Origin: Rosellinia necatrix
Lineage: Eukaryota; Ascomycota; Sordariomycetes; Xylariales; Xylariaceae
DNA: 64,000 nt
Direction: 5' to 3'
NCBI GenBank assembly: GCA_021209875.1
Contig: JAGYVD010000006.1
Coordinates: forward strand, 248,001-312,000
Positions 32,748 to 55,047 of the stretch are shown in pieces. The number at the start of each line of letters is the position of its first letter. Position 1 is the first letter of the stretch. The position numbers and the translations under genes were made by a program. Under the pieces are notes generated by a model. That model had not been told where the DNA came from, searched no databases, and saw only the letters and a program-made list of their open reading frames with translations.

Positions 32748-32752
32748 AGTAT

Positions 32753-33061
32753 TATAACAAGGCTTGGCTTGGAAGGGTAATAATTGCTTTATATTTATAA
32801 TAATCTTTTTTGGTTTTAAGGAGCGATGTGTTAAAAAAGAAGAAAATCTAGCTATTCTAGCTCGGGCTGTTATTTATGCCAGATCTTTATATAGTAAGTT
32901 TCTACAGTCTAAATCTTTATTTTTACAGGTGGTTAATTAATTTCCCAGCTTTATATATATTAGCTTTTTTAATATATTATTACTTTTTAACAAATATTTT
33001 AGCATTTTTTTTAATTTTTTTTAAGCTTAGCGTATTTATAGCACTAATAGTCCGTATAATA
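32753..33061 (-). repeat. Outer element LTR, left (3' LTR)
   Basis: 309 bp. The first about 130 bases (outer side) keep many C and G (for example CAAGGCTTGGCTTGGAAGGG), while the inner side is almost pure A/T. Equal in length to the right LTR and alignable throughout. Confidence 0.85.
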
Positions 33062-35329
33062 TAATTTTTTTTTTTTTAAAGCTTGTTTTTAAAACAGTAA
33101 CTTATTAAGTCGCGCGGTTATTAGCTGGCTTGTTTAAATATTATTAATAGTATTTTTTAACTAGTTTTTTAACGCTTTTATTTTTAAAATGTTTATAAAG
33201 TTTTTAAGTTTAATACTGTTTAATAAGCTAACTTTTTTATTTAATTAAATATTTAACGTGTTTTTAAGTTTTTAAAAAGTTTATAATTTGTTTTATTTAA
33301 TAATTTTTAGCTTTTATTAAGTCTATTTTTTATAAAACTTAGTTAAAGTTAAACTATGTTTAATTATTAACGCAGTAAAGCTTTATAAATAAAATATAAA
33401 ATAAATTATAAATTTTTACTTTTAAATAATATTAATTTAACAACGGTAAAAAAAATTACTTTTTTTATTTAAAAAAGTTTAAGCATTTTTTTATCGAGCT
33501 TTTTAGCAGGCCGTTTTGTTTTAATATTATAAACGTTAAACATTACTAGCTGATTTTTTATATATATAAGCGCTTTAGATCGTTATTTATTAGCTTATTT
33601 TTTTATTTAGCTTTAGCTTTTTTAAATATTTTTTACGTTTTTATAGATTTTAATTATTTAATATATATATAAAATACTTTTAAATTATATAAAGTTTTTA
33701 TAAAAAATTATAAGTTGCTAAATAAAAGCTATAATTTACAAAAAAATTATATATAATAATACTAATGTTATATTATTATATATAAATTCCGTTATAAAAA
33801 GTAAATTTTTTAATTAAATATTTTATAATTTATAAAAGCTTATAAATAAACTTTAAAAGTTTAATTAAGTTGTTTAATTTATTTATTAGTTTAAAAATAA
33901 AAACTATATTTATTTTGCTTTTTATATTTATTAGCTTAAAGAATTTTTTTATAAATAAAAATAAACTTAGAGTTTTATTAAAAATAATATTAAAAATATT
34001 CTATAAAGCTTTTAATATGTTTTAATAAATATTTAAATAAAATTTTCCGTTTTTTACTGTTTTTTTAAAAGTATAAAATAAGCTATTTTAATAAACAAGT
34101 TTATTATTACTTATATAAAATTATACTTGTTAAATAATAATAAGTTAATTATAAAATTTATTATTACCAACTATTAAAATTTATAATATAATTTTATAAG
34201 TTATAGTTGTTTATAAAAAAATGTTATAAAAGTTTATTTTATTAGCATTTTAAATATTTATAAATATATTTTTTATTAATTTTTTAAACTTAGCTACTAG
34301 AAGTTTTTAATAATAAGTTCTAAAGTTTTATTTATTTTTATATAGCCGGCTATTTTTATATTATGTTTAAATTTTAATATATTTTATTAAAAAATTCTAG
34401 TATTTAAAAGCGTTTTTTTTTATAAAATAGCCTATCGATTTTTTCGACATTTTTTTTCGAGGTTACAACTTATATTTAATACTTTAAGTTTTTAAAAACA
34501 GCTTTTTTAACTTTTTAAATAAAAGATTCTGTTTATATAAGCGTTTTAAAGCTATATAATCTAGCTAATATAATAATAACTGCTAGAGCCGCTAAAAATA
34601 ATAAGCTATATAAATAAAAAAAATGTTTATTTTATAAAACTAACGTGATCGGCTGGTTTTTAGTTCTTTTTTTTTTTAGGCGATATTGTTTTAAACGTAA
34701 TAAAATGTTTACTTTTTTATTCTGCTGTTCTAATTAATAATTTATAATAAACTAATAAAATAACAATTATTAAAACTATTTTGTTTATTATTTATTAAAA
34801 ATTTTTGCTGTTATAAAATATGCTAGGTTTTAATAATCTAAATATATTTTTATCCGGTGTTTAGTTTTTTTTAAATATTATTTCTATTTATTAAATAAAT
34901 TTATAATAGCAAATAGTTTTTATTATATATTTTATAGTTTATTTTAGCAAGCATTAGTTTTTATAAATAAAAAACAATAGGTTTTAATTTATTATTATTA
35001 TTTTTATAATAAAACTGTTTTTAAAATAAAATCAGAAGCATTTGTTTTTATATATAATATTTTTATTAGATTAAAATATATAAATATTAATGTTTTTATA
35101 AACTGTTTTTAATTTTATAAAATACTGCGTTTATAAGTTCTTTTATTATTATTTTTTTATTTAACTTGTTTTTGTTTATTAAAAGTTTTATAACTTTTAA
35201 AAACTTAAAAATAAAACGTCGATAAAAATTAATAAAACTTATAAACTGCTAGCATTTTTAAAATTAATTAATATTTGCTATTTTTAATATATTATATTTT
35301 ATTTTTAGCTATTAAAATTTTATCTGTTT

Positions 35330-35630
35330 TAATAATATATTTTAAAAATTTTATTTTTTAAACCTGCTATTTATATTTTTAAAAAGCAATAGCTAAGTTA
35401 TATTTTATTAGTTTTTTTAAGACTTTTTTAATTAATACGTTATGTTTTTTTATTATGTTAGCATATATTAGCAAGTTATTTAAATATATTAAAAGTTTTA
35501 TATTAATAAAGTTTTAAAATAAATAGTTTATTATAGATTAGAAAATAAATAAGGCGTTAATAAGTCCTATAGGCATAACGTTATATTTAAACAGGCTGTA
35601 TTTGCAGCAAAAGGCGGTTTTTTATTTATG
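35330..35630 (-). pseudogene. Decayed Gypsy reverse transcriptase fragment (outer element)
   Basis: The minus-strand translation gives a chain of short frames matching the palm region of Ty3/Gypsy reverse transcriptase, interrupted by stops at former Trp/Gln codons as expected from RIP. Non-functional. Confidence 0.65.
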
Positions 35631-38146
35631 TTTTTTTTTAATATAAATTAAATAGAATTTTAATTTAAAGTTTAGTTTAAAAAACTATTATATAGTTTAT
35701 AATTTTATTTATAGTTTATTAATTAAAAAAATAAAATATTAAATAAGTATTATTATATTATTAAAGCTTTGATAGTTAATAATTAGTCGTAAAAAGTTAT
35801 TAAAGTTTTTTTTTTTTATAAATATAAAAAAAATATTATATAAAACAGTTAATTTTTTTATTCTGCTGGTATTAAGTATTTTTTTTAGCTAAAGTTTTAA
35901 TATTTTTAGCTTCTGCGTATTTATAACATATAGCGGTTTTTATAAAAAAGTTGTTTTTTTTATTAAATTAATGCTATAATTTTATAATTAATAATTTAGT
36001 AGTTTATATATAGCTGTTTTAAATATAATAAGTAAAAATTTTTAGAATTTAATAAGCATTTAATTAAAAGCGGTTTTTATAGCTGCTTAAATTAAAGCTG
36101 TATTAAAATTTAAAAGTTTTAAAAGTATTTTATTAGTGCAGTTTTTTTAACAGTAAAAAAATAAAAATCGGATTTTTTTCGTAGCTTTAAAATATCTTAT
36201 AGGTTTATATTTTATTATTTATTAGTTAAAAAATATAATATTATATTTTTGTTTATATTAATTAATTTAAAAAAGCTTTATAAAATAATTTTTTAATGCT
36301 ATAATACTAAGTTTTTAATATAATATCTGCTGTTATTATAACTATAAAAATATTAAAACTTATTATTAGTTTAAAAACTTGTTGTTTAATAATAAAAGCT
36401 TTTATTTCTATATTTTTATAAAAAACATTATTAAAACTAACATATTTATGTTTAAAAATATTTAAATTAAATGTTTTTTATTATTATATAATAATATTAT
36501 TAATATAATAAAGCGCGTTTTAATACAAAGTTTTAAATATTATTATTTATTAAGCTAGAAGTTTTTTAGCTCGAGGGTTTGTTTAGTCTTATAAATATAA
36601 AACGTATTTTTATATAGCCTGTTATTTTTATAAAATATAGCATAGCAGGCATTTAAAAATCTAAGTTTAACTTAATATTAGTTTTAATTTTTATAAATAA
36701 AGCAGCAGTAAGCTAAGTAGTAATAGCGTTAATTTTAGTTTTTTTAAGCAGTAGCGCTATTTTTTTTATAGCTTTTTATTTATTTTTAATATTTATAATA
36801 TTAATAGCAAAAAATTTTTTGAACGTAAATAAGTTTTTTTTTTAAATGTTTTTTTTAGCAAAGTATTTTAATATATAATAATTAAATCGATTATATTATT
36901 AGTAGTTAACTTTGTTTTGTTTTTATTTATTAATAGCAGCTTAATCGACTTTTTTAAAAATGTTAGCTATATTAGTTTATTATTTATTTTTTAAGTCTAA
37001 CTTAAGCTTATTTTTATTTTTTTTAAGCTTATTTTTTTTTAAAAATCGGTCTGCGGCTAAATTAAAGCAACTTTTTCTGCTATAATATAATAAGCCCGAT
37101 TTTAAAAGCTTTATTATTAAAGGAGGCTTATTTTTTAACGTTAATAATAACCTGGGGTTAATAAATATAGTTTTATAAATTTGTTTTGTTTTATAAACTG
37201 CTTTTAAAAATTTATTATTATTTTTTAAAATTGCTTTTTTTAAAAGTAAATTAATTTAGTAATTTTATTAGAAAGTATTTTTAAAATATAGTTTTAATAT
37301 ATAATATTAAATTATTAAACTTTTTATTAAAGTTTATTATTTCTATTAAATATTATAATATGTTTTTATTATATTTAAAACTTATTATTTTTCTGCGTTT
37401 TAATATTTTAATAAAAAGTTTTTAAAACGTTTTTAAAAGCTGTAAAATATAATTTTTAATTATCTGTTAATTTTATTATTTATATTTAGTTAATTTTTAT
37501 TAATATTATATTTAACTTTTATTTATTAATAAAAAGCTTATTTAATTAATTTAAGTTTAATTAATATAAAAGCTGTTTTTATATAACTTAATATATATTT
37601 TTATTTTAATAAGCTAAAGCTTAAATTTAAAAAAATTTTTGTTATATTATAGTAAAAGTTTTAAATAAATAAAGTTTATTATAAAAAATAGTTATATTAA
37701 ACGTTTAAAAGCTTTTATTAGCTAATTTTTAAGTTTAAATGTTTTATTGTTAAAACAACTTAAATTATTTCAAAAAAGTTTAAAAAGTTTTTAGCTGCTG
37801 CTAAAGTTATTATTATTATTATTAAAAGCTTTAAATAAATCGTTATTATTTAAGTTTTTATAATTTAAGCCGTAAAAGGTTTTTTTATTGCTGCTAGCAG
37901 CTGTTATATATAAGCCGGTTTTTATTAAATTAAATTATATATAAACGTTTTAAGCTATTTGTTAAGCTTATATTTTTTTAAAAAACGTTAAAAATAGTTT
38001 TTTTTTTTATTTAGTTTTAAAAAACAAATATTTTATAAAAAGTTGCGTGCTAAAAACAAAATTATTAATAAAAACATTTAATGTTTAAGTTTAAACTTGT
38101 TGTTTAAAATAGTTTATTATAAATTAAATATTAATTTTATAATTAA

Positions 38147-38378
38147 TGTTGCACCAGTCACAAATAAGAAGTCAAGGCTTCAGTAATAAGTGATATATTG
38201 TACGAAAATCTACAGATGAAAAAGGAAAGAGTAAGTGGGAGGAATTAGCCCACTAGAATTCTAGCTAAGTGCAGGTGTGTGGGGTGGGTCCAGTCTGTGC
38301 GCTGTGCGCACTAGTTGGCAACAGGTGTATAGATATTAGTCCGTGCCATATGTATTAGCTAACCAGTTATCTGTAACT
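38147..38378 (-). repeat. Inner element LTR, left (3' LTR)
   Basis: 232 bp, starting TGTTGCACCAG and ending GTAACT on the plus strand. Its first third is less mutated than that of the right LTR, its last third more mutated. The central about 100 bases are nearly free of RIP changes. Confidence 0.9.
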
Positions 38379-39359
38379 ACCTCCCCCTCCAGAAAAAAAA
38401 ACGGCTTGTTTTTTAAGTCGTGTTTATATTTAAACATATAGCTTTTTAATATGTTTTCTAGCAAAAAAAAAGATTGCCTCAGGTCTTTATTTTATGCTAC
38501 GCTCTCCGGGCTTTTATATTATTAAGTTATCGCATAAGTTTTTCTGTATTACGTTACTAACTTTTCTTTATTTATTATTATGTTTGTTTTTATTTCTGCT
38601 TTATTATTTTTTGTTGTATTATTTTATTGTTATTTTTATATGCTGCACTTAACTTATTATTTTCTGCGGCTTTAAGCTAATCTTTTAAACGTTTCAGAGG
38701 TTCTGCCGCGTTTAAATATCTTTTATAAAATTCTTTTAATAATTTTACGCTGTTTTTAAAGTTCTAGGCAAAGTATTATTTATTATTGGTTTCTTATTTT
38801 TTTTAAGTTACTTAATATTACAATTTCTTGTAGTATATTTTTAACGATTTAATTTTTTCGACTATAAACTTTTCTTTTTTTTTAAGCTCTATTACTTCGT
38901 TATCTAGGTTATCAGCTTTTTGTTCCAGCAGTAAGTTATTAAAATATAATCGCAGTTTGTTAATATAATAACAGTTTATTGCTTTTTATAAAAAAAAAAT
39001 ATTTAATACAAAAATATTATTATTTTTATTAATTATTTTAAACTTTTATTACGTTATAAAAAAGTCCAGCTTATTAGATAGTCGGTCGGTCTTCTACGAT
39101 TATTTTTTTTTTAAAATTAACATATAATTACTTATATTAAAGTTAGGTTCTTTTTACTTATAGTTAGCCTGTTTAATTATATAAGTTTAAGTTTAAATTA
39201 AATATTTTTTTGCCGAATCTATAAACTAGGCGATTTTTTTTGTCCTGTTTTAAGCTTCCGTTCTTAAAGTTTTTTTTTTTTTCGGGAGCTTTTCTAACTT
39301 CTCTGCTACAGTTCGGTTTTTCTAATTAAAATAGAAAAGTATTAGGAATCTTATTTCTG

Positions 39360-40100
39360 CTTTATAAAGTAATATACCTGTTAATTCGTGTAGTAGTACT
39401 GCTTATATATAATCTATTGCTAGGATACGTTCGGACCAATTATTCTAGTAGTAATTAACATATAGTTATAGTTGTTGATCTAAATATTTATTTATAATTT
39501 CTGCCTGTCCTGCAGTTTTATAATAGCTAGTAGAAGCTAAAATATGCTTTATGCCTATTAGCTTATATAACTTGTTTATAAATGCTAAAATAAATTATAA
39601 ACTTCGATCTAAAGTTATTGTTGCTAGTATATTAAACATTTAAAATAGCCCTTTATAATACATTTTAGCTGCGTTTATTATAATAGCTTATATAATATAT
39701 AAAATCGTCCAAGCTTTTTTTTTTAATCGGTTTATTATAACAAACGCGTTATTATAACCATGTTTATCCTAAGGCATCTGTTTAAAATTTATTACTAAAT
39801 ATTGCTACACGCGGTTAAGTACTAGCAAAAGTTTTAGTTTGCCTAAGGTTTTGTTACGTAGTACTTTTGCCAGGCGGTATTTTATATAGTTTGCTACGTA
39901 AATGTTGCAGCTGTCTGCTAGTCTAGGCTACTAATATTTTTTTAATACTAGTTTCTTGGTTTTACGTTTTTTTAGATATGCCGTAGGCATACAGTCGTAG
40001 ATTTTTTATATTAACTTAGTTCTTAGGTATAAGTAGTCTAGTACTACCAGTTGTTTATTTACCGTCGTTAATCCGTCTATTATTTACTAAAAGTTATTAT
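39360..40100 (-). pseudogene. Decayed Gypsy integrase region (inner element)
   Basis: Minus-strand reading shows the C-terminal half of a Gypsy integrase core, including a block equivalent to the conserved DGQxE region, followed by typical downstream residues, broken by stops. Non-functional. Confidence 0.65.
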
Positions 40101-41199
40101 CTTTAGTTTTTTTAGCTTTACGTCGGTAAATTTTTATACCGGGGTTTTCGCGGTTTTTTTTTAATATCCTCTCGATCAGTCGAGGTTTTTCTAGATTTTT
40201 TAGTTCTTTACGTAGGTATACTACTAATATTTAGCAGTTATACTTTACCTAACCCAGGATATATCTTATAGTACTATCCATAGGTTAAAATATTATTAAA
40301 TGTTTTTAGGCTTTTTTTTTTGCTTTTTATATCAACAGATCCTCTTGTTTTCAAGATAAAGCATTTATAACCACGTTTTTTTTTCCTAGTCAAAAAATAA
40401 TAAAAAAATCGTATTTTAAAAACAAGTTAGTCTATCCCGCTTGTTATAAGTTTAAATATTATTTCGTGCTAAAATGTTCTAGAGCTTAATAATTAATAAT
40501 TACTAGAAAAAGTTCTTTTTATCCGCCGACTAGTTTGGGTCGCTATTTTTTTAAAGCTATAGCTACTGCTAACATTTTTTTATCGGAGATTTTATAATTT
40601 AACTTAGCATTATATAATATTTTTAAAAAATAAGCTGTTAGATGTTAATCTTTTTCGTGTAACTAAAATAACGCGCCGAAAGCTACTCCGTTAAAAGAGT
40701 TAGTCTTTACTTTAGTAAATAAGTTATAATTATAATGTTTTAGTAGTGGTGCAAAGGTCAGGGCCTTTTTTAATACGCTAAAGGCCTTGTTATATTCGTT
40801 AGTCTATTTAAAAGCTTCTTCCTTTTTTATTAAACAGTTTATAAAAAAAGCTATCTGATTATACTTATTTATAAACTTCTTATAGAAGTTGCAAAAACCT
40901 AAAAAAGACTGCATACTTTTTATAGTAGTAAATGCTTTCTAATTTACTACAGCTTTTATTTTAACAAAATTAACACGGATACTGTCAACACTTACTATAT
41001 AGCCTAAAAACTTGGTCTGCTTTATATAAAATTCTAACTTTTTTAAGTCGGCCTGTAATTCTACGTCTTGTAGTTTTTAGAGCATTTTCCGGACATATAT
41101 GCAGTAAGTTTCTATATTATTAGAATAAATAAAAACGTTGTCCACGTATACGCTATAAAAATTATTTAAAAAATCAAACAATATATTATTAATATATTT

Positions 41200-41706
41200 T
41201 TAAAACATAAAAAGTCCATTCGTTAAACTAAACAGAAAAACTTTATAATAGTAGGCTTTATACTTAGTATAGAACATAATAAGGTCTTTGTCCCCCGGAT
41301 ATATTTTAATACAATAGAATGCTTGTTGTATATTAATTTTTATAAAAATTTTAGCATTAAAAATATAAGACAGGGTTTCCTTAATAAAAAGCAACAAGTA
41401 CTGGTCTTTTTTTATAATTTTATTAAGTTTTCAATAGTCTACATAAAAACAGAGTCCTCTGCTAGCTTTTTTAACAAATAATACTAAAAAGGCATACAGT
41501 GCGTTGTTTAGCTTAATAAATCTTTTTTGCAAATTATTGATCAAGTGTTCTTGTACAGCGTGCAGCTCGTTAAATAACATTTTGTATAAAAAACTATACT
41601 TTAAGTCTTTTAAAAACTTGCCGTTTATAAAGTCTATTTTATAGTCCACTTGTAGTCGGTAGAGGGGCAATTTATCTAAATCCTTTTTATTAAACGCGTT
41701 TAACAA
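41200..41706 (-). pseudogene. Decayed Gypsy reverse transcriptase (inner element)
   Basis: Two adjacent open stretches (41706-41431 and 41397-41200) on the minus strand read as the start of a Ty3/Gypsy reverse transcriptase: the LFVKK..GLCFYVDY block, then IKETL, KIFIKINIQQAF and KVFLFSLTNG. They are separated by a short gap with stops. Several residues differ from the usual family residues as expected after G-to-A change. Confidence 0.8.
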
Positions 41707-43288
41707 GTCGTAATATTTAGAAAGTATAAGTTCTAGTACTTTTTTCTCCGCGTTTTTACTTTTCTGGTCTTTTTTTTAGTTAATTAATTTATCGATTTAA
41801 TAAATACTAGTAATTTATACCTGGTTATTAGTTTTATTTTTATATACTAACGTTTTAAAAGCAACAGCGCTAAAAATAGCGATTTAAATGTTCAGTCTCT
41901 TTTTATACCAACTTATTCTGTCTCTTTTTATTTAATAAGGTCTAAAAACATCTAATTTTTAATTTAAAAATATAGATCGTTTTTTATTTAGCATGCTTTT
42001 TCTTCTGGTTTAAAGCTTTAAAAGCTTGTTAGGCGGAGGTACGTTTTTCAAGTTTTAGTTTATTTTTTCTATATTTTTTAATATAAAATCGGATTTTTTT
42101 ATAATTTTTATTCTTGCTACTAATATTTTTTTACAGAAGCTTTCCTTAGCTTTTTTTTTTTAGTTTTTTTAACAGGCATTTTTAAAGTCGATGTTTCTGT
42201 CCTTTTGTTCAGCATCTGTTTAATATTTTAAATGTTATAACCACGTTCTAGCTTTATTTATAGCTAACGTGTAATAGCATTTATAATTTTTTAACAAGTA
42301 AAATAAAAAAATTAATATATGCTGTTTAATATTAAGCAATATATTATGCTGTTTAAACTATTTTTTTTTTAATACCACCTTCTGTTCTATATTTAAAATA
42401 CTAACAAGTATATTTTTAAATGTCTTTTTATATATTTTTAAAATCAGGCGTAAAGCACAATTAATTTTTTAATCCGACTTTCCGTCGTACTTAATTACTA
42501 GTCTAAGTCTAAACTTATTTTTAATAAATAGGTTTAACAGCTTTATAATCTTTTTAGCAAAAAGTACGTTTATATTTATATATACACCAGCTCCCGTGTT
42601 ACTAAATACGTTAAAAATAATAAACAATAGTTTATTACTACATAAAGTACAAATATATAATAAAAGTTCTCTACTTAAGTAGTTATTTATTAAGTCTTTT
42701 TTTATTTTTACGCAATAACACCATCTCTAAAAAAAAATCTATTTTTCTTAAAGTCACTTTTTTCCCGTTTTTTTTATCGCGCTTTTTTTAATTTTAAAAA
42801 AAGCTGGTCCAAACTTATTTATAATTATATTTATGCAAACATTACGTTAAACCTAATCCACGGCTTTTATAAAACAGTTTTTAGTAACATATTTTTTCTG
42901 TTTACATTAAAAGCACTTGCTTTCAGCAATTAATTATTTTATTTCCTTTATTATAAGTTAGAGTCTCTGTCTTTTTATAAACGTGTTTACTAGCAGGGTT
43001 AGTCGCGTTATTATAACCAAAAAAGGTCTAATATAACAAATATATATTATATCTTATAGGTTATTTTTTATTTTATAGGCCTTGCTTCTTTTTTTAATTA
43101 TTTATAAACAAATAATAAGCTACTTAAATATAATATTTTATATAAACGTTAAAATCTATAGTGTTTTTTAAATATTTAAAAATAGTTTTAATAGTTATAC
43201 AGAATAACAACTTGTTTTTAAATTCTTTTTTCCACTTAGCTTTATTAAAGCATGTTTTTTCAGCAAAACATATAAAATCCGTTTTAAA

Positions 43289-43552
43289 CTATATAAATCT
43301 AGCAAATATATACTTATTAAAATTCAAAGCCTTATAATCAGCTTTTGCTTTTTTTAAAACATTTATATTTTTATAAATATTATATAAATGTTGCATTAAA
43401 TCTTTTAAAGTCGTGATTATATTTAAATATTTATTAGATAAATATAAAACCAAGTTTTTAAATACTTTTCCAGCAAAATAGGACTTAATATCGCTTATTT
43501 TTACATTATTACTAGCAAACCAGTCCACGTTCACTTTAAAACAGTTGGTCAT
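43289..43552 (-). pseudogene. Gag-like fragment (inner element)
   Basis: An 87-codon open stretch on the minus strand resembling the capsid region of fungal Gypsy Gag proteins (hydrophobic-helix spacing, then a segment ending in ALNFNKYIFARFI). It lies 5' of the RT as expected. Fragment only. Confidence 0.5.
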
Positions 43553-44696
43553 GTTTTAATACTATATTTTAAATTCCACTTTATTTTTTAAAACGTTATT
43601 ATAAAACTTATTCATAAATATTTTAATCGATTTCCGTGTTCCCTCTTTTAAAATTCTAAAAACAGGTGTTCTTTTTATACAACCTAATAAATTAATAACT
43701 CGTTAATTAAATTTATTTAATAAATCTTAAATATAGTCGCGATCAGTTATTATAATCTTTAGTTCAGCTATAACATAGTTTATAACTACGTTATTATTTT
43801 AGCTTTTAAATAGTTTAAAAGTAAAAGGTTTATATCTTTTGTCCTGTTTATATAATTTATCTAATTCTTGTTATACTTTAACAAAGCTTTTTTAAATATT
43901 AAACAGTTGTTTTTAAGCTATTATTAGCTCTATTTTAATATTTTTAAGTTGTTTTTGCTTTTTATTAAACGCTTCTTCGTATTTTATAACATAAGCGCTA
44001 AATTTTATAGCTTATTTTATAACGGTTTTTATTTATCCGGCGGTATAACATACAATAAAATAATAATTAGTCGCCGTTTATTAAAAAGCTATCAGCATAT
44101 ACATTTTAATTTTTATTTTATTAAAAAAAATAATAAAAATAAAAAAAGTCCGTGCAAAGTTTACAAATAATTCCACGTCAACAAGTCCGTCGAAGTCAGG
44201 CTAAACAAAATTGCCCTCTTTTATAATAAGTTTCTAAAAAAAAGCCTATCGGTTGCCTTTTACAGCAATCACAGCAAAATTCTATACTAAAATGCCGACC
44301 GCTTTATAAAAAAACTTATAAATCTTGTTATATAAAGCGGCCTAAAAGTCCAAAGTTTTAACTTACAAATAAAATTCTCAAGCAAAATCAAACAGTAAAT
44401 TCCGTGTAGCTTTAGTTTTAACACCAGCTTTAATAATCAAGTATGCTATACTAAATCTTTTAAAAATAACTTAAATATACTTAGTCTTAAATGTATTACT
44501 AAAAGTCTTTTTAACAAAGTACGCCGGAGACTTAAAAACCTTACGTAATAAAATAGCGTCCTAGCGTGCTAAATTTTTAGCACGTTTACAAGCACCGCTA
44601 GCAAAAAAAATCAATACTATATCGTCGATATTATTTTTATATAAAAAATATTTAAAAAAGCAGTCCTAATGCTTTAAAATAAAGTGATCTATAGAT

Positions 44697-44928
44697 TGTT
44701 GCACCAGTTACAAATAAAAAGTTAAAGCTTTAGCAATAAATAATATATTATATAAAAATCTACAGATAAAAAAGGAAAGAGTAAGTGGAAGGAATTAGCC
44801 CACTAGAATTCTGGCTAAGTGCAGGTGTGTGGGGTAGGTCCAGTCTGTGCGCTGTGCGCACCAGTTGGCAACAGGTGTACAGATACTGGTCCGTGCCACA
44901 TGCATTGGCCAACCAGTTATCCGTGACT
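44697..44928 (-). repeat. Inner element LTR, right (5' LTR)
   Basis: 232 bp, aligned without gaps to the left LTR. Differences are almost all C/T or G/A. The last third keeps C and G lost from the left copy. Confidence 0.9.
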
Positions 44929-46267
44929 ATTAACTATTATTTAAACTTTAGTTTTTTATACTATTTAATTAATAAAGCTTTTAAGCTTTTTAATTTGTTT
45001 ATAAGTATTTATATTTTAAGCAAAGTTAATATATTTTTTAGCTAAAAGTTGCTTAATTTAAGATTTTTTTTGTTTAGTTTAATAAATAATAATTTATTAA
45101 AACATTTATTATTGTTTAACAGACTAAAATAATTTTTATAAAACATAGAAGTATTAAATAGCTGCTTTTTTTAAGCGGGTAATAGTTTTTTTTTAAGCAT
45201 TATTATTTTAAATAGCTTAAGTAATTATATTTTAAACTTTTTTAAAAAAAGCGTTATTAGCTTTAATTATATATTTTTAAAAGTTATAAGTCTGGACTTT
45301 AATAATTTTAATATAATTTTATATAAAATAGCTTATTGTTAAATAAAATTATTAAATATTATTATATTATTTTTATAAAATATTCCGATTAATTTAATTA
45401 ATATTAATTATATATTATATAAGTTGCTAAATATTTTTATAAATATTATAATATATTTTATAAAGCTTTTTATTTATAGCTTTAAAAATTTAATAATTTT
45501 ATTGTTATAAATAAATAAACATTGCTTATAATTATATTAAACTTAAAAAGTTATATAATATAAGTTATTTTTAAATAAAAAGCTAAAATTTTTTAAAAAC
45601 TATAAGCAGTTTATAATATTAAAGCTTATAATTGTTTTAAAACTTATAAAAATATATTTAAAGTTTAATTTTATAGACCGTCGGAAAAACAAAAAAATAA
45701 AAATAAATTTTTTAAAACTAGTAATAAAAAAAAATATAATAAAAAATTGTTTTTTTAGCTTTTTAAGCTGTTAAAAACATAGCGTTAAAATATTAAAAAA
45801 TTAAAAGCTTAGTTGTTTTAGCTTAGCTAAAATATTTTTAACAAAAAAAAACTAGTTTGTTTTATTAGCAAGCTAAATAAAGTTCTAGTTATAAATTTAA
45901 AGTTGTTTTAATATATTTAATAGTATTATTTTTATAATAGTTATATTTATATTTTTATTGTTTTATTTTTATTAAAAAAATTAATTAAGTTTTTTATAAT
46001 TAAAATTAAATTTTTTGTTTATTGTTGTTTTATTTTTTTAGATTTATTTTTAAATTTATTAGATTTTTTAATAGTTTGTTTTTATCGTAGAAATTTTTAA
46101 AAAAATAAAGTTTATCGCAAATATAAACTAAAAAATAGTTTTATTAATTAAATAATATTAAAAAGTTGTTTTAAATAGTTATAAAGTTTAATAATATATA
46201 TATATTTATAAAAACAAGTGCAAAAGTTCTATAAATACTAAAGGTTTTTTTAAAAAAAAAGATTATT

Positions 46268-46915: not shown

Positions 46916-49900
46916 CTATTGCGCGATACTGTGGTATGACCAGATACGCACTCTTTTGTCGCCAGAGCCTGCGGCGAAGAACCCACCAGTCGGACTAGCA
47001 GCGACCGATGTCACACCGTTTGTGTGTCCCTGGAGCATCAACTGAGAGTAACCGGTGTACGGATCCCAGAACTGCACCCACCCATCTCCAGAGCCAGATA
47101 TTACCCAGCGTGCATCCGGAGTAAACGCAACACTAGAGACATAACCTCGGTGACCTTCCAACGTCCGGATATATCTTCCTTCCTTTGGTGCAGTATTACC
47201 CGGGGGACTGGGAGGAGAAGGCGGAAGGCCCCATATTTTGATCGTCCTGTCTGAACTGCCACTCACAAGCTCATTGCCGCTAGGAGAGAAGGCGACAGAA
47301 TAGACGCTGTCATGTTCATGCCCGTCAGAACCTTTCAGGTGCTGTAATTGGTGCCCTTCGGTATCCCAAACACGCACGTCATTGTCCCAGCATCCACCTG
47401 CCACATACTTAGTATCTGGTGAAATAGCCACAGAGAGAACGGCATCTTCAACAGTGAGGGTTAATATATTCGTGCCATATTCAATGTCCCAGAGGCGAAC
47501 GGTGCGATCCTTCCCACTAGACACTATAGTCCTACCATCCCGGGCAATATCCAGGGAAATTATAGCACCCTGATGTCCTGCGAGGGTATATTGAAGGGTT
47601 CGGTTAGCGATGTCCCAAACCCGAAGGAGCTTATCGCCTGCACCAGTCACAAGATATTTGCCATCAGGACTAAAGCAAACGCTTCTAATATACGCATCGC
47701 CGGTAACATTCATCTTTTCATCCTGTAGAACGCAGACCCTTTCGCCATTGGAAACATCGTAGATTTGTGTCGAATGATCGCAACCAGTTGCTAGGTATTT
47801 TCCATCGTGACTGAATTGGACAGTGGCGGCTACGCTCTCATGAGGTAAAGTGTGAATAAGGTCCACACCAAGAACACGCGGGACGTGTTGGTTGAAAATT
47901 ACGATCCAATCATTCTGGGCCATGACGTCACTAAGCGTGTCGGGATGCTCTCTGCCTAGTGCTTGTTCTCTTAGCTCTGGTTCTTGTCGATATGTCGTCT
48001 CGGGCTCTTCATATCCCTCCGAGATCGCTGGGGAGAGAGGCCTAGAACGCAATGATATGGACGAAGAATCGGCAATTGATATCGCATCCCTTATGAGCGT
48101 TGTTAGTAAAACATCAACGAAAGGAGTCCTAGCAACTTACATTCCGTTCTTATGGGCCTCATTTAGCATAGATATTTTCCATTCTTCTATATCAATGCCA
48201 CCCCCATTTCCCCCATTTCCCCCATTTCTCCCATTTCCCACTAGTATTATCTCTTCGAAATGCATATCCTCCAAATGTCGGAAGTACTCATCGTCGCCCT
48301 GGCCGCTCTGCGAGCCACAAAGCGTACAAACCCACTTCTTCATCACACTATTTTGCGTCCGTCTGGACGATTGACGGCTTTGCGAAGAGGACCAGCTATC
48401 ACTAGAGTCTTCCTTGAAGTATAGATTTCCAGAGAAATAATCCAGGTTGAATTGGGCTATTGACGGCGATTCTACTTCGCTGATGTTCGGTGGGTTACAG
48501 TCAAGATTGCAGAGCTGAAGCCATGGCCCATCACTTGGTGTCGTGTTTTCGGGGTATTTAGTCATGTCAAGAGGCAACTCGTTGCCTTCAGAATCAACAA
48601 CGCTTATTTCCCCGGAGGCTCCCTTTTTCGGAGCCACACTTTCGGCCCATTCGGCAACCGAGAAAGAATATTTGATACCGCTATCATCCCTATGGGGTCT
48701 CGTTGCATAATCTGTATTAAATGTCGCAACAGGGTTGCTTGGGCTGAAAGGCAGATCCGTCGGCCAAGGGAGGGAACGAAGCGAAAAGTCATGAACATGC
48801 TGCAAGACGTGCTCGACCAATTCGGGCGAATCTGAGGGTCCTTCGCTGTCACATAGTGGACATTTAGTAATTCCCATCACCTTGGTTTCTGCGTCTGATA
48901 GTAGGTCTTCGAGATTATCAGAGATCGCATCCGGGTGTCTAGACATGATATGGTTTATTACACCAGAGAGCGACTTGAACACGGGAGCGTCGCCGGCGCA
49001 GCAAGGACAATGCCATTGAGACGGGTGGTCATTCATGAAATGGTCCTTCCATTCGTTATGTGTCGCGAATAAATTGTACGGCTTTGGACAATTCTCGAGG
49101 ATACATGTGTACGGGTTTATGTCGTTCGCTAGATGTTTTCTTAGCCAGTTAGCATCCCGAACCAAACATGGAGAGAGTCCCTTACTTCCACTGGCTAGCT
49201 TCCGCCTCACTCGCCGGGATGGCTTGACAGCAGCAGGGGCATTTGACCAACTTCTGTTCCGAAGGAGCATGCGCCTTGGGATATCTTGCGGCGGCTGTAA
49301 TGGTTGTAATGCGGGTGGCCGTTGAACTGGGCCGGCGGCTATCTCGAAGTCCGCCCCATTTCGAATCCAGGCCCGAAGCCGACGTCACAGTCGTCAGGGG
49401 AGCGCCGTGTCTAGGACTACCCAGCAACGCCTGCATTGTCGCAGCTACATTCCTGGCCGAAGTGGAGTTGGCTCCCTGCTTGACATAGCTTGACGGCGTC
49501 TCAGCGATAGTCTGCTGTGGGGTTATTGAAATGTCTTTCAGACCGTGAGCGTCTTCCAGACTGCGGACGTCTTCCAGACTACGGGCGTCTTCCAGACCGC
49601 GAGAGTGTCTCTGAGCTTCTAGAAACCGATGTCGTCGTCGGAGGTTGGCCTCGATGAGACGTTCTTGAATTGATGTGAGCTTGATGTTTGCGAAATAATC
49701 GACGCTGTGTGTTTCTCCCCCCTCATTTTCGGGCCTGCCATTCTCCGTTGGCCTCGACACGATAATGCAAGCGAGATGTGCTCTGAACGTGCGGTACTTC
49801 TCCCGATTCCCATCAAAGGAACCATCCGCTTTTTCAAGTCGAGATTTGCGCCCGCTTCGTCGAATCTGAACCCCCAGGATGGCCAGACTGTCTATAGTAG

Positions 49901-50219
49901 AATTAATATTGGAAATTATATCCGTGGTATCGGATTTGTTATCTGCAGCAATCGAGCATTCACCGAAAAAGCCCTGTAGCATGAAGAGGAGCCCTCGGAT
50001 GAGATAAAGGTCGGCAGGCCGGTGCTGGAATCGCTGATCTAATGACGCCTTCGCGTGAGCGGTGGCCCCAACGCTATCGGCCCAGAGCCTTAGGTCGGCC
50101 AGTCGGGTCTGCATATAGATTTTGTCTTTGCCCTCTAGCCGTTGGATGCTCTGCCTGGCGCCTTCGAAGCACGACCTCGTCAGATCAGCAAGGGAGGCTT
50201 TTGCAAATGCGGGATCCAT
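46916..50219 (-). CDS. Fusion protein: fungal helical N-terminus + AcuF-type C2H2 zinc fingers + TPR relic + Tup1/RCO-1-type WD40 propeller
   Basis: Three exons (50219-49186, 49139-48141, 48089-46916) sum to 3207 nt, exactly 1068 residues; both introns have GCTAAC or ACTAAC branch sites. Residues 1-344: helical region common in fungal accessory proteins (ADSVGA..ASLDQRFQHRP), an LEDxR repeat (about 205-230), and a first Cys-rich turn (KCPCCCQAIP). Residues 345-677: C2H2 fingers of the AcuF-like type (NPYTCILENCPKPYNLF, QWHCPCC, KCPLCDSEG, VCTLCGSQ) and a GN-rich repeat. Near 700: one TPR-like unit, LREQALGREHPDTL, as in fungal NLR repeat arrays. Residues about 745-1068: seven WD40 blades closest to the Tup1/RCO-1 corepressor (SVCFSPDGKYLVTGAGDK, RTVRLWDIEYGTN, VQFWDPYTG). 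The Tup1 tetramerisation domain is absent. Divergent from the subtilisin gene. The role, perhaps sensing or scaffolding, is inferred. Confidence 0.85.
49545..49615 (-). repeat. In-frame 24-nt repeat coding LEDxRS units
   Basis: Three to four copies of a CTGGAAGACGTCCGCAGT-like unit (element strand) inside exon 1 of the zinc finger-WD40 gene, coding repeated LEDAR/LEDVR octapeptides. Confidence 0.8.
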
Positions 50220-50587
50220 AGCAGATGCCGTTGTCGTTGACTCGAGTTCACTCGAAGAGCTCGACCCGTGAGGGCCTTAAGAGACATATACCTAAACGGG
50301 TGATGGCTCAGTAGAAGGCAGGCTCGCGCAGTCTATGAATTTGTCAGATGGAGGAAGAGGGCTGTATGCTTGATCTGCTTTCAGCTGTGAGCTGTGGCCC
50401 CTGCACATTTGCATCGCATGGCTGGCCAACCCGACCCCTGACCTCAACTGTGTGCGGGGGTGCCGCCCAATCAGCCACCAGTGTGCTTCCTGTCGATATA
50501 ACTAAGATAGCCTCATCGTAGATCATCGTCGTCGGAGATCAAGATGGCGCCATCTTTCCCTCGCCTGGCCTCCTTGCCCGTGTCACT
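50220..50587. promoter_or_regulatory. Shared divergent promoter, zinc finger-WD40 / subtilisin genes
   Basis: 368 bases separate two divergent start codons (50219 and 50588). No coding sequence recognised. The distance suggests co-regulation of the two genes. Confidence 0.55.
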
Positions 50588-53500
50588 ATGGCGCCTGCGC
50601 AAGATGATCCCGGTGCGTTGCAACTCGTTGCTTCCATAGCTCTTACATGTTTCGACATTCTTTTCCCCCTAGCTGTCAGGCACAAGAGCGGCGCGGCTGC
50701 CAAGGTCGCCATTCTGCTCAAGTCCATCGCGGAAAATCTACAAGAGCTTTCCAAAATCCCCCCTGATGCGCAAGCTGGTTCGACAAATGTTCTTCGGGAT
50801 TTATTACGCATAGCCGAGGTATGGAACAGCGCCCGAGCTACAGCAGCGACTTGAAGTAACTGGATCAACAGTGGCCACCCCGGCAGAATCAGTCCCATCG
50901 AGAGAAGAGCCCTTATGAGCTATGGTCTGCTCTTGTTCATCGACCTGATCTCCAGATACAGCGATCGGTTACTAAATTTTGCAAAGAACGGCCCAATATC
51001 ATCGAGCCCTTCGGATCGCGCTTTGCCGGTTTCTTGGACATGCTCACGAAGAACATTACGGGATCGCAGCGTGCCCTTGTCCACTCCGCCGCTTATCTGC
51101 CGCCTCCTCCTAGGGATGAATATCCTGACCAAGTTCACAAGCTGCTCCTCGACGGGGTAAAACGCTACGCAGCTTGCATGCTGGAGGATCATGTAGGGCC
51201 AGAACTCCAGGGTGCGGCGAAAGCCAATTGGCATATCACTAGGCTGTGCCTCGGATCAGGCTTCCGTTCAGAGGACCAACGAGTGCTTTTCAAGCTCATA
51301 ACCACAGCTTCGAAAATGACACACTGGCAGGAATTAGCCTTCCAAATTCCGATGCAAGTCCATTTTTCTTACACGCTCCCTCCATATGTCTTCACACTTA
51401 CCTTTTCTCCAACACCATAAAGAAACCTCAGCAGCCAAAGGCATAGATACTGCTCTATTCGATCCCTCATCCCTCCCATCCTTGAGACAGAATTATCTCT
51501 TTTTTTAACGAACTCTGCACCAATATCAAGGTATTCGGTCGGGCTAATCGAACACAGAATGAACACCAAAACGAAAAATGCTCATGAATCGCAGCAGGGT
51601 CAAGACACCTCCGATACTCCCACCTTAATTGCAAATGGAGATGCTTGCAAATCCCTCGACAACCCAATTTTTGCTGGAATACGTATTGGCAAGTGTAAAT
51701 TCATCTTATTCGTTCAAGCTAGCAGCGCTAAGGACACTCCTGTCAAACTCGGATCGCCCCTAGTCGGATGTTGGGTAGCCCCCTGCAGCAGACGCCAAGC
51801 AAAGTTGCTGCTGGCTCTGCTACTATCTACTATGAACACCTCTCCTTTCCTTTCCTTTCCTTTCCGAAACACGAAAAAAATATGAGAGTAAGCGCAGTCC
51901 AGAGTTTAGGCCCCAGTATAAATTTTGGGGTTTTCCGATTGTTGGGAAATTTCGGGAGCTGCGCTTTCTCACACAGTCGCCCGCGGTAGGCAGAGTTGTA
52001 AAAGGAAAGCGATGCCCCATACGATAAGGTGAACTCCCTGCTTCCAGGGCGTGATCGAAAAGTAGTGAGAGGTAACGTCTGATTAATAGACGAGAAGTTG
52101 CACAGCTAGTCATATTCGTCTCCTCCCAATTACTGACAAGTCAACAGAGTTAGGTGAAGACTACCATCTCTACCAACTGCAAGAACCTGAACAACTGAAG
52201 TATATCATATCGCGCCATGGTTTACCACTTTCCGAACTGTTAAAGCTAGGCGACCTCACAGTCGAGCAGAAGGTCAAGTTGTCTTACACTGTCGCTCGGG
52301 CATTCTGGCGGTTTTACAACTCGGAACTGATGAACACCAGGTGGACAAGTGAAGACATCTTCCTCTTCCGTTTAGATCAGCAACTATTCTCTGCCGACGA
52401 TATTCTTTTGAGGGCTTTCGTTTCTTTCCCATTCCGCGGCCAGTACAAGGAACCCCCCGCAGAGTCCTACGATGAGGGGAACTACACCCACAGGTATCCA
52501 CGAATACTATGCTTGGGGATAATTCTTCTGGAAATTGGGTTAGGCCAGGCAATACCAGTGGGAAATGTGTCGGAATTTGTCTTTGCAGGGCATGCAAACC
52601 TGGTTCATATGAAGGCAAGAAGGAAGTTGGAGGAGTTGAAGGGCGCCAAGTGGGATGCTTTTGGGTCGAAGGACTGCTTTGTCGAAGCCGTTGAGAACTG
52701 TTTGCATTCCGTCAACTTCAATGAGACAACCAACCGCCAGAGATCCCGGCATAAAAGAGATTCGAGTGAAAAGCCAGACCTCTCAGAGAGGAGAAATGCG
52801 CTCTACCAAAAGGTGGTTGCGCCCTTATCCCGCCTAGCGGTGGTAGGATTCGAAGGCTCCGATGAACCACCATTGATCCGAATTCCAAATGAAGCACACA
52901 GTAAATCAATATCCGCCAACGGCAATAAGGAGCTTCAAAATTCCTGGGGTGAAATTCACCACGCCCACTCTTCGTTCCTCTCCGGCCCCTCGGAGAGCGA
53001 GGGGGGATTCTTCCCTCATCTCCAAGTCATAGCCGGACACATAAATCGCTGCCGAAGGCTGGCGAATACCGCAAAACCAATCCGAGTCGCCATATTGGAC
53101 ACCGGGTGTCAGAAAGAATTAGACTTTTTCAAAGACAATTGTAGGTCGAAACGGGTCAGAGGCTGGAAAGATTTCACCATGGCAGGATCGCAAAGCGCAA
53201 TCGACACGTTTGGTCATGGAACATTCATGGCACGGCTGCTCATGCACGTCGCGCCAATAGTAGATATCTATGTCATTCGTGTGGCAGAAAACACCGAGGA
53301 CCTGCAGAACCATGAGCAGAATATCGTCAAAGTATGTGACATGTTGTTTTCCATCAGCAACGTACTGACAATCGACTAGGCCATCGTACACGCCGGACTG
53401 GACCCGGAGTGGAAGGCTGATATCATCTCCATGTCTTTTGGGATGCCCAATGAGCGTAAGAAGGAATACAAGGCTATTTCAGATGCCATCGACAAGGTCA

Positions 53501-54027
53501 CAAAAGAGCGCGATGGTTCTGTGTTGTTCTTCGCAGCGGCCGGGAACTCAGGGATAAGACAAGAGAACTTCCCAGCCAGCCATGAACACGTCATATCTAT
53601 ATATGCGACGAACTCAGACGGAGACTTTTTGGGGTCAAATCCATCCCAGCCGCATAATGGACCCAAGCTTCTCGGTGCTTACGGTACCGATATCCCTTCC
53701 TTCATCAAGGAGGAAATCCAGACGCCTTTCCCAAAAGCGGATTTGAGCGCGGGAAGCTCAATCGCAACCGCTATCGCAGCCGGGGTTGCTGCTATGATGC
53801 TATCATATGTCGCAGCATTGCCGACATTGCTCAACTTCAAATCGGCAGAGACGGAGTGCGCTAAACTTCATACGAAGAGCGGGATGCAGCAGATGCTGTA
53901 CGTCATGTCAGCCCTCAAGGGACATAAACATTGCTTCATCAATCCGATAGGGTTTTGGGGCGAGAAAGGGAAGGAGATGGAGGTGTTCACGGCCGTTTGC
54001 GCTGCGGTCGATCAAATTAAGGGCTAA
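50588..54027 (+). CDS. DUF7580-type N-terminus with subtilisin (peptidase S8) domain
   Basis: Multi-exon gene. Exon 1 (50588-50818) and exon 2 (from 50872 to about 51362) join in phase and form a helical N-terminal region of the fungal DUF7580 type. The middle (about 51.36-52.15 kb) I could not resolve into exons. From 52148 (acceptor CAACAG, CTGAC branch site) the DUF7580 part continues (LSELLKLGDLTVEQK, ARAFWRFYNSELM). A peptidase S8 domain follows; an intron at 53332-53379 splits it, and the gene stops at 54027. Catalytic residues appear present: Asp in VAILDTG, His in DTFGHGTFMA, oxyanion Asn in AAAGNSG, Ser in SAGSSIATAIAAG. No signal peptide, so it should be intracellular. Intracellular subtilisins of this build occur in fungal heterokaryon-incompatibility and NLR gene sets; HET-Q2 of Podospora is one. 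The candidate substrate gene is the convergent neighbour. Confidence 0.82.
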
Positions 54028-54209
54028 TAATGAGAGATTGAAATCCGATGCCACATTGGCCATATAATTTTTCTAAACGATAAGAGCATAACCTACGCGT
54101 CACTGTCAGCCTCATCATGAGTTCTAGAATTTCATCTCGACCCATGACCGTAAAGGGGCGCTCTGGTCGCCTACTTAAGACCTCTGTATCGATCGAGCCG
54201 CTTCTTCAA

Positions 54210-55047
54210 TTATCCCAATGGAAGATGAATGCACACCTCATTCTCTCCAATATCCACTCTTTCGTACTCAACCTCTTCCTCCAAGTCCTCATCAATCTCC
54301 TCTTGCGTAGCCTCAACAAGAACCAGCGGCTCCTGTGCTTCGCCCGCGGCACCGGTCAAGAACGCGCTCTTGTGGGTGAACAACCCCGTCTCCAGCCCCG
54401 CCCTACGGGTGCGAATGACATGAAGCCGATACGCGAACACGATGCCCGGGGCCGTCTCATACGAGTCGGTGACCGTCTTCTGGCCATCGCGCCTCGCCGT
54501 CCCACCAATCTCGACGGGCAGCGTTCCCGCGGGCGGGCCGGACGCCTCGGCCGCCACGGTAAAATCGGAGCCCCTTTCCTTCGCCACGGTGAACGACGAT
54601 GTGGCAACGCGCAGCCCCGAGACGACGTAGACCGGTCGCTTGCCAAACATGCCCGAGTCGATCTGGGCGCGCACCGCGGGGAGGTTAGCGATGGCGCTCA
54701 CCACCTCGGGCGTCAGCGGGTCTTTGAAGCTGTGGATTTCATGATCTGTTTCACCGTAGTTGACGCTACTGCTCTTGCCGGAATCGCCGCCCGCCGAGAT
54801 GGACGCGAGGCTCTCGAAGGTAAACCACATGCCGAGACCGCCGGACCGTGACTGCGAGCGGCTGTGGGCGTGATTCGGCTCGACAATGGTTGTCTGGGGT
54901 GGTAGTTGAATCTCGCCCGCAGCGCCGTGGCCTACGGCCGCAAGGACGGTCGTCGGTTTGGACCAGTGAGGGATCACCATACCAAGGCGGAGGGGGGCCA
55001 TCAATGGCGAAGGTAAAATCCGGCAGTAGAAACCATGTGCTAGTCAT
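54210..55047 (-). CDS. Possible fungal gasdermin-like (HET-Q1/RCD-1-type) protein, one-base frame break
   Basis: Minus-strand gene with ATG at 55047 and stop at 54210. It opens with MTSTWFLLPDFTF and later has VYVVSGLRVA, SGPPAGTLPVEIGG and DSYETAPGIVFAYRLHVIR, blocks I associate with a widespread fungal family of about 280 residues. The last about 49 residues, beginning just after a Phe at about 229, form an acidic tail (EEIDEDLEEEVEYE). Fungal gasdermins such as HET-Q1 are about this long and are activated when a neighbouring subtilisin removes a short C-terminal tail, and this gene is convergent to a subtilisin-domain gene 182 bases away. The first 18 codons are out of frame with the rest; the switch lies at a run of six G (54992-54997, plus strand). 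Dropping one base gives 837 nt, 278 residues. It is either an assembly error or a disabled allele. The family call rests on memory and context and needs a structure search. Confidence 0.55.

What the first reader, a model, noticed from the sequence alone, without database searches (positions are those of the whole stretch)
46916..55047. Candidate three-gene cell-death module: zinc finger-WD40 sensor, subtilisin, gasdermin-like protein
Seen: a divergent pair (zinc finger-Tup1-type WD40 and DUF7580-S8 subtilisin, 368 bp between starts) plus a convergent 278-residue protein with an acidic C-terminal tail after a Phe. Known: in Podospora anserina the subtilisin-like HET-Q2 cleaves the C-terminal tail of the gasdermin-like HET-Q1 and kills the cell; fungal gasdermin genes often sit beside protease genes. 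Inferred: this locus is such a module with an added WD40/zinc-finger partner acting as sensor or regulator, which I have not seen described.
Basis: partly seen in the sequence, partly recalled or inferred. Interest (0 to 1): 0.9.

Follow-up and report, generated by a model that had tools for sequence, protein, structure and literature searches.

The report
Three-gene fungal gasdermin cell-death module
A fungus carries, side by side, a pore-forming suicide protein, a protease likely to switch it on, and a third gene likely to be the sensor, whose end is a copy of a central gene-silencing protein (Tup1), as if it were bait.

Summary

New points: (1) the zinc-finger N-terminus is conserved, but its C-terminus is swapped: WD40, TPR, ankyrin, kinase, kinase-HET, NACHT or nothing; (2) the WD40 here is a copy of the Tup1 corepressor propeller (68% identical to own Tup1), behind a TPR relic; (3) four DUF7580 genes without protease also have a divergent zinc-finger partner, suggesting a sensor-transducer pair with exchangeable outputs.

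I infer a split, decoy-like sensor driving a protease-gasdermin pair. Sensing, cleavage and killing are untested. The window's gasdermin has a frame break near its start (assembly error or decay).

The parts
46916..50219 (-). Zinc finger-WD40 gene (putative sensor), 1068 residues; exons 50219-49186, 49139-48141, 48089-46916
   Evidence: gene model, canonical introns; homolog in R. necatrix 90% identical over residues 1-720
48734..49214 (-). Conserved zinc-finger core, residues 336-480 (spans the first intron)
   Evidence: 138/145 identical to R. necatrix; weak zf-C2H2 Pfam hits only
47930..47977 (-). Relic of a TPR unit, residues 716-731
   Evidence: aligned with the start of the TPR part of P0243 and P0246; by my reading
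46919..47920 (-). Tup1-like seven-bladed propeller, residues 735-1068
   Evidence: 234/342 identical to the genome's own Tup1 propeller; PDB Tup1 1erj E 2.2e-86 in one stretch
50220..50587 (.). 368-bp shared region between the two divergent start codons
50588..54027 (+). DUF7580-S8 protease gene; coding blocks 50588-50818, 50872-51357, about 51559-51711, about 52144-53331, 53380-54027
   Evidence: tblastn of five relatives, the third block found with four of the five; Pfam
52147..52900 (+). C-terminal half of the DUF7580 part (approximate)
   Evidence: Pfam PF24476 E 3.4e-20, profile positions 120-313
53080..54027 (+). S8 subtilisin domain (approximate), crossing the intron 53332-53379
   Evidence: Pfam PF00082; triad kept in relatives: Asp 47, His 45, Ser 46 of 47
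54210..55047 (-). Gasdermin gene; N-terminal residues in another frame than the remaining 277-codon frame 55043-54210 (frame break in a base run near 54,990-55,000)
   Evidence: 177 homologs, fold, alignment with intact relatives

Best explanation
A three-gene regulated-cell-death module of the fungal gasdermin kind in which sensor and protease are separate proteins. The zinc-finger protein is the sensor: its constant N-terminal and zinc-finger part couples to the DUF7580 part of the protease, and its swappable C-terminal part meets the trigger. In this lineage that part is a copy of the propeller of the corepressor Tup1, plausibly bait for something that targets Tup1. When the sensor is disturbed, the DUF7580 part releases the S8 protease, which cuts the gasdermin in the disordered linker near the conserved Phe and removes an acidic tail of about 49 residues; the freed N-domain makes pores in the plasma membrane and the cell dies. 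Shown here: gene structures, gasdermin fold, subtilisin fold and conserved triad, linkage in other Ascomycota, domain swapping, Tup1 origin of the propeller. Inferred: sensing, contact between sensor and DUF7580, cleavage, pore formation, bait role.
For: Fold: RCD-1 best; profile search of the PDB hits only RCD-1 (4 of 4 hits at E<=10). Linker disordered, Phe 87 of 89, acidic tail. Triad, subtilisin fold. Three genes consecutive or nearly so in six species. Own genome: 5 of 5 gasdermins within 10.2 kb of an S8 locus, random maximum 2 of 5 in 20,000 draws; all 3 DUF7580-S8 fusions found have gasdermin and divergent zinc-finger gene. Swapped C-termini, Tup1 copy and TPR relic. The WD40 part is the least conserved part against R. 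necatrix, 276/347, while the compared protease part is 446/455.
Against: No activity of any kind is shown. Pfam finds no gasdermin family in any of 89 relatives and the single-sequence PDB search finds only chance hits. The window's gasdermin frame is interrupted. Kinase nature of DUF7580 is not shown. Only 33 of 67 listed zinc-finger homologs, one of them by coincidence, share a contig length with a listed partner (partner lists capped at 120). Two of the five own gasdermins (C7, C8) have an S8 gene but no DUF7580 or zinc-finger hit nearby, and four own zinc-finger/DUF7580 pairs have no gasdermin hit.
Confidence: 0.6

Rival explanations
1. The zinc-finger protein is a transcription regulator. 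Its C2H2 fingers bind the shared 368-bp region and its Tup1-like propeller represses the protease gene, keeping the death pathway quiet; there is no sensing by the propeller.
For: Divergent arrangement in 7 of 7 paired DUF7580 places of this genome; C2H2-like fingers (weak); Tup1 is a corepressor (recalled).
Against: The same position holds TPR, ankyrin, kinase, kinase-HET or NACHT-type parts in relatives, which are not corepressor parts. Tup_N is absent from the Pfam scan of exons 1 and 2. The propeller is the least conserved part.
Confidence: 0.2
2. The module is old and real, but the copy in this window is decayed: the gasdermin frame is broken and the protease gene carries an extra stretch, so the locus no longer works in this strain.
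For: Frame change in the gasdermin; unresolved joints and a 429-nt single-copy stretch inside the protease gene; the R. necatrix protease annotation covers only 455 residues.
Against: The break lies in a run of one base, a common place for assembly errors (recalled); the remaining 277-codon frame, the S8 exons and the 1068-residue zinc-finger frame are open and well conserved.
Confidence: 0.25
3. The C-terminal parts of the zinc-finger protein are plain scaffolds for assembling or placing the complex; their exchange reflects drift and recombination, not recognition.
For: WD40, TPR and ankyrin parts are general interaction scaffolds (recalled); the window's repeats are not alike (mean identity 32%), unlike the strongly conserved repeats of Podospora HNWD receptors (PMC12881547, passages read).
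Against: Faster divergence than the neighbouring parts; different junctions of the Tup1 part in relatives; HET and NACHT-type parts in some relatives.
Confidence: 0.2

Closest known systems
HET-Q1/HET-Q2 of Podospora anserina (gasdermin activated by an S8 subtilisin)
   Same: Gasdermin of about 280 residues with a short C-terminal tail after a Phe, next to an S8 protease gene (PMC10989679, passages read)
   Different: HET-Q2 is 388 residues (PMC10989679); here the protease has DUF7580 and N-terminal helices (relatives 809-915 residues) and there is a third, divergent zinc-finger gene
Q2-like multidomain proteases beside fungal gasdermins (two-gene clusters)
   Same: Protease gene beside the gasdermin gene; repeats such as WD40, TPR and ANK in the system; kinase-like fusions and two- or three-gene clusters are mentioned (PMC10197012, PMC12881547, passages read)
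   Different: There the repeats are described as fused to the protease; here they sit on a separate zinc-finger protein, and the WD40 part is a Tup1 copy
RCD-1 of Neurospora crassa
   Same: Same fold, best structural match
   Different: RCD-1 works by two antagonistic alleles and not by proteolysis (PMC12881547, passages read); here a protease gene is adjacent
Sensor-helper head-to-head NLR pairs with integrated decoys (plants; rare in Sordariales)
   Same: Divergent pair in which one partner carries an exchanged extra domain (PMC12258605, passages read)
   Different: No nucleotide-binding domain in either window gene by Pfam; the output is a protease-gasdermin pair
Tup1/RcoA corepressor
   Same: Propeller 234/342 identical to the genome's own copy
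   Different: No Tup_N part found in the window gene; fused behind zinc fingers in a cell-death cluster

Membership tests
Fungal gasdermin | Gasdermin pore-forming fold | tested here: met
Fungal gasdermin | Sequence relation to a known gasdermin | tested here: inconclusive
   Profile of 89 relatives: only RCD-1 chains among hits at E<=10, best E 0.011; no Pfam gasdermin match in 89
Fungal gasdermin | Short C-terminal tail behind a protease-accessible linker | tested here: met
   Residues 222-238 pLDDT under 50; Phe 87 of 89, acidic tail of mean 49 residues
Fungal gasdermin | Kills cells by membrane pores | not testable with these tools
   needs expression
HET-Q2-like S8 protease (Q2-like) | S8 fold and catalytic triad | tested here: met
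HET-Q2-like S8 protease (Q2-like) | Gene within 10 kb of a gasdermin gene | tested here: met
   182 bp between stops in the window; consecutive tags elsewhere
HET-Q2-like S8 protease (Q2-like) | Cleaves the gasdermin tail | not testable with these tools
   needs a biochemical assay
NOD-like receptor | NACHT or NB-ARC nucleotide-binding domain | tested here: not met
   None in the Pfam scan of the three exon frames of the zinc-finger gene or the protease frames (for the WD40 exon 25 of 60 families were shown); two distant zinc-finger relatives do carry one
Protein kinase or pseudokinase (for DUF7580) | Profile or fold relation to kinases | tested here: inconclusive
   hhalign probability 0.6%; fold list filled by subtilisins; order of strands and helices looks kinase-like to me
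Tup1 corepressor | Tup1-type propeller | tested here: met
   234/342 to own Tup1; next best-scoring own locus 40%
Tup1 corepressor | N-terminal Tup_N part | tested here: not met
   Not in the Pfam scan of exons 1 and 2; the only own-genome Tup_N match is at C2:1383622 (27.1 bits, cut-off 28.7)
Allorecognition (het) locus | Balanced or trans-species polymorphism and incompatibility phenotype | not testable with these tools
   no population data or strains

The most novel reading that the evidence does not exclude
The divergent zinc-finger/DUF7580 pair is a general receptor-transducer system of fungi, independent of NLRs, whose receptor half takes up copies of cellular proteins as bait. Here it guards the corepressor Tup1, taken up more than once at this locus, and its output is a protease that fires a gasdermin: an integrated-decoy receptor wired to pyroptosis-like death without a nucleotide-binding domain.
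Probability: 0.33. Interest if true: 0.92.

Novelty: new variant of a known kind. Interest (0 to 1): 0.76.

Why it matters
A 2025 review calls the nature of the stimuli that activate these fungal death pathways a major open question (PMC12881547, passage read). Here the putative sensor is a separate gene whose exchanged part can be read off: a Tup1 copy in one lineage, other domains in others. That makes the question testable, by looking for what binds both Tup1 and its copy. The zinc-finger/DUF7580 pairs without protease or gasdermin suggest a wider sensor-transducer family with several outputs.

Tried and rejected
Single-sequence PDB search with the gasdermin frame gave only chance hits; the profile was needed. 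Pfam on 89 relatives: no gasdermin family. Kinase relation of DUF7580 by hhalign: not shown. PDB profile search with five own DUF7580 proteins: one chance hit. The fold searches of the DUF7580-S8 model listed only subtilisin-like and sedolisin-type proteases in the rows shown, so the N-terminal helices and DUF7580 remain untested by fold. Repeat origin of the 429-nt stretch inside the protease gene: one copy found. A gasdermin upstream of the C6 protease: none in C6:431.0-437.5 kb; it lies on the other side. Rejected: 'the zinc-finger gene is a chance neighbour', because of locus tags and pairing in the own genome. One contig-length match (6105) is between different sources and is coincidence. 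Literature: no held paper contains DUF7580; none holds 'fungal gasdermin' with protease and C2H2; the listings of searches showed no title on such a module. Clave et al. 2022 is not held, so its architecture tables were not seen, and absence from it is not claimed.
Full report
What was checked. The window is 64 kb of a 49.1-Mb genome in 12 contigs (G000, contig C4:248001-312000). The closest homologs of all three proteins are from Rosellinia necatrix and other Xylariaceae, so the organism is a close relative of R. necatrix (my inference).

Gene structures. The zinc-finger/WD40 gene runs 50219-46916 on the minus strand in three exons with introns of 46 and 51 nt and translates to 1068 residues. 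Its start codon lies 368 bp from that of the protease gene. The protease gene (50588-54027, plus) has coding blocks at 50588-50818, 50872-51357, about 51559-51711, about 52144-53331 and 53380-54027 by tblastn of five relatives (the third block with four of them); the joints inside 51358-52146 are unresolved. Pfam gives DUF7580 and Peptidase_S8. The gasdermin gene lies convergently at 55047-54210; its first residues are in another frame than the remaining 277-codon frame, the change lying in a run of one base near 54,990-55,000. Relatives are intact there.

Linkage elsewhere. Locus tags are consecutive for all three genes in Phialocephala subalpina (PAC_11567-11569), Cladophialophora immunda (PV07_09761-09763), Talaromyces pinophilus (DPV78_000394-396), T. 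amestolkiae (BHQ10_000690-692) and Scytalidium lignicola (B7463_g5277-5279), and nearly so in Endocarpon pusillum (GJ744_002989, 992, 993). Adjacent pairs are seen in others: gasdermin and zinc finger in Xylaria hypoxylon and Neoarthrinium moseri; gasdermin and protease in Clarireedia, Pseudocyphellaria, Conoideocrella and Bipolaris oryzae; protease and zinc finger in Xylaria bambusicola, Fusarium floridanum, Neonectria ditissima and Penicillium frequentans. By shared contig length, a proxy only, 14 contigs carry all three, 18 gasdermin and protease, 7 gasdermin and zinc finger, 11 protease and zinc finger, one of the last a coincidence. Of 67 listed zinc-finger homologs 33 (one by that coincidence) have a partner this way and 34 do not; the partner lists are cut at 120 of 177 and of 223.

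Own genome. Five gasdermin loci were found (C4 window, C9:1.05 Mb, C7:5.40 Mb, C8:0.905 Mb, C6:0.448 Mb). Each is within 10.2 kb of one of 25 S8 loci; 20,000 random placements never gave more than 2 of 5. DUF7580 was found at 11 places. Three are fused to S8 (C4, C9, C6), and all three have a gasdermin and a divergent zinc-finger gene nearby. On C6 the zinc-finger gene runs into a protein kinase domain and is followed by a HET frame; whether these are one gene is open, but the Alternaria relative P0263 is one 1690-residue protein with both. On C9 the zinc-finger gene was seen by eye and its homology confirmed among 13 fragments (E 8e-14 to the C6 one). Four more DUF7580 genes without S8 (C2:5.41, C9:1.61, C5:2.65 and C8:4.51 Mb) also have a divergent zinc-finger gene. 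So 7 of 11 DUF7580 places are paired, and all 7 pairs are divergent; counting only hits it is 6 of 11, against at most 2 of 11 in 20,000 random placements. Two of the four unpaired places contain several stops. Five zinc-finger places are not near any DUF7580 hit, and two gasdermins (C7, C8) have an S8 gene but no DUF7580 or zinc-finger hit nearby.

Swapped sensor end. In the 67 zinc-finger homologs the N-terminal part is kept while the C-terminus differs: WD40 (12 of 67 by a profile of the window's repeats), TPR (for example P0243, P0246, P0255), ankyrin (P0264, P0268), kinase (for example P0257, P0258, P0261), kinase plus HET (P0263), NPHP3_N/NACHT type (P0290, P0302), or nothing recognised (for example P0252, P0253). 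Some of the last may be annotation errors. Within Xylariaceae, WD40, TPR and none occur behind N-terminal parts that are 64 to 90% identical to the window's.

Tup1. The window's WD40 part is identical at 234 of 342 positions to the propeller encoded at C2:1384367-1385465, which lies 0.65 kb downstream of the genome's only Tup_N match (27.1 bits, just under the cut-off of 28.7). The next best-scoring WD40 locus is 40% identical. In the PDB a regular WD40-repeat protein scores highest, in three stretches; yeast Tup1 (1erj) is second and matches the whole propeller in one stretch, E 2.2e-86. The window and nine relatives carry a Tup1-like part (59 to 77% to own Tup1); three further WD40 relatives are at 32 to 41%. 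The junctions differ: in the window, R. necatrix and Xylariales sp. No.14919 a short TPR relic precedes it; in X. scruposa, X. curta, X. flabelliformis (two proteins) and X. cubensis a longer Tup1 piece is joined further upstream; in X. bambusicola (two proteins) there is no relic. This fits more than one uptake, but one uptake with later trimming, or wrongly predicted introns in relatives, is not excluded; in the window the junction lies inside one exon. Between window and R. necatrix the WD40 part is identical at 276/347, the linker at 199/230, the gasdermin at 240/262, the N-terminal part at 311/329, the zinc-finger core at 138/145 and the compared part of the protease at 446/455.

Interpretation and limits. 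I read this as a split-sensor version of the known fungal gasdermin-protease clusters, with the zinc-finger protein as sensor, DUF7580 as the linking part and the Tup1 copy as likely bait. Chemistry, contact and killing are not shown, and a transcriptional role of the zinc-finger protein remains possible. Reviews describe gasdermin-protease clusters, repeats and kinase-like parts fused to the protease, and two- or three-gene clusters (PMC10197012 and PMC12881547, passages read); none of the passages read names a zinc-finger partner or Tup1. The primary survey (Clave et al. 2022) is not held and was not read. In Aspergillus fumigatus a CHAT protease allele acts at a het locus (PMC11138114, passages read), so proteases of this pathway can be incompatibility determinants.

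Noticed in passing
window 32001-46000: A block of very low G+C (14 to 26% in 2-kb steps) directly beside the module, looking like RIP-mutated repeat DNA.
   Followed up: no
G000:C6:437722-448900 (L009, L055, L071, L065): Second module of the same kind: DUF7580-S8, divergent zinc finger-kinase gene followed by a HET frame, and a distant gasdermin.
   Followed up: partly
G000:C9:1052286-1059931 (L004, L005): Third module: gasdermin, DUF7580-S8 and a divergent zinc-finger gene in which I saw no repeat domain.
   Followed up: partly
G000: C2:5413882, C9:1606006, C5:2654004, C8:4510652: Four DUF7580 genes without S8, each with a divergent zinc-finger gene and no gasdermin hit; several have a hydrophobic N-terminal helix-like start.
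   Followed up: partly
G000:C5:2650572 and C8:902016: HET domains within about 3.5 kb of a zinc-finger/DUF7580 pair and of a gasdermin-S8 pair, respectively; the genome has 129 HET matches.
   Followed up: no
G000:C7:5395757-5400319 (L006, L007): Gasdermin next to an S8 gene preceded by a weakly patatin-like stretch (E 0.014, under the cut-off).
   Followed up: no
window 51712-52140: 429-nt stretch inside the protease gene that relatives appear to lack; one copy found in the genome.
   Followed up: partly
P0255 (Phialocephala subalpina PAC_11567): Named as a major facilitator protein in the database; it is a zinc finger-TPR protein with a transporter piece at its end, probably two neighbouring genes fused in annotation.
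   Followed up: no
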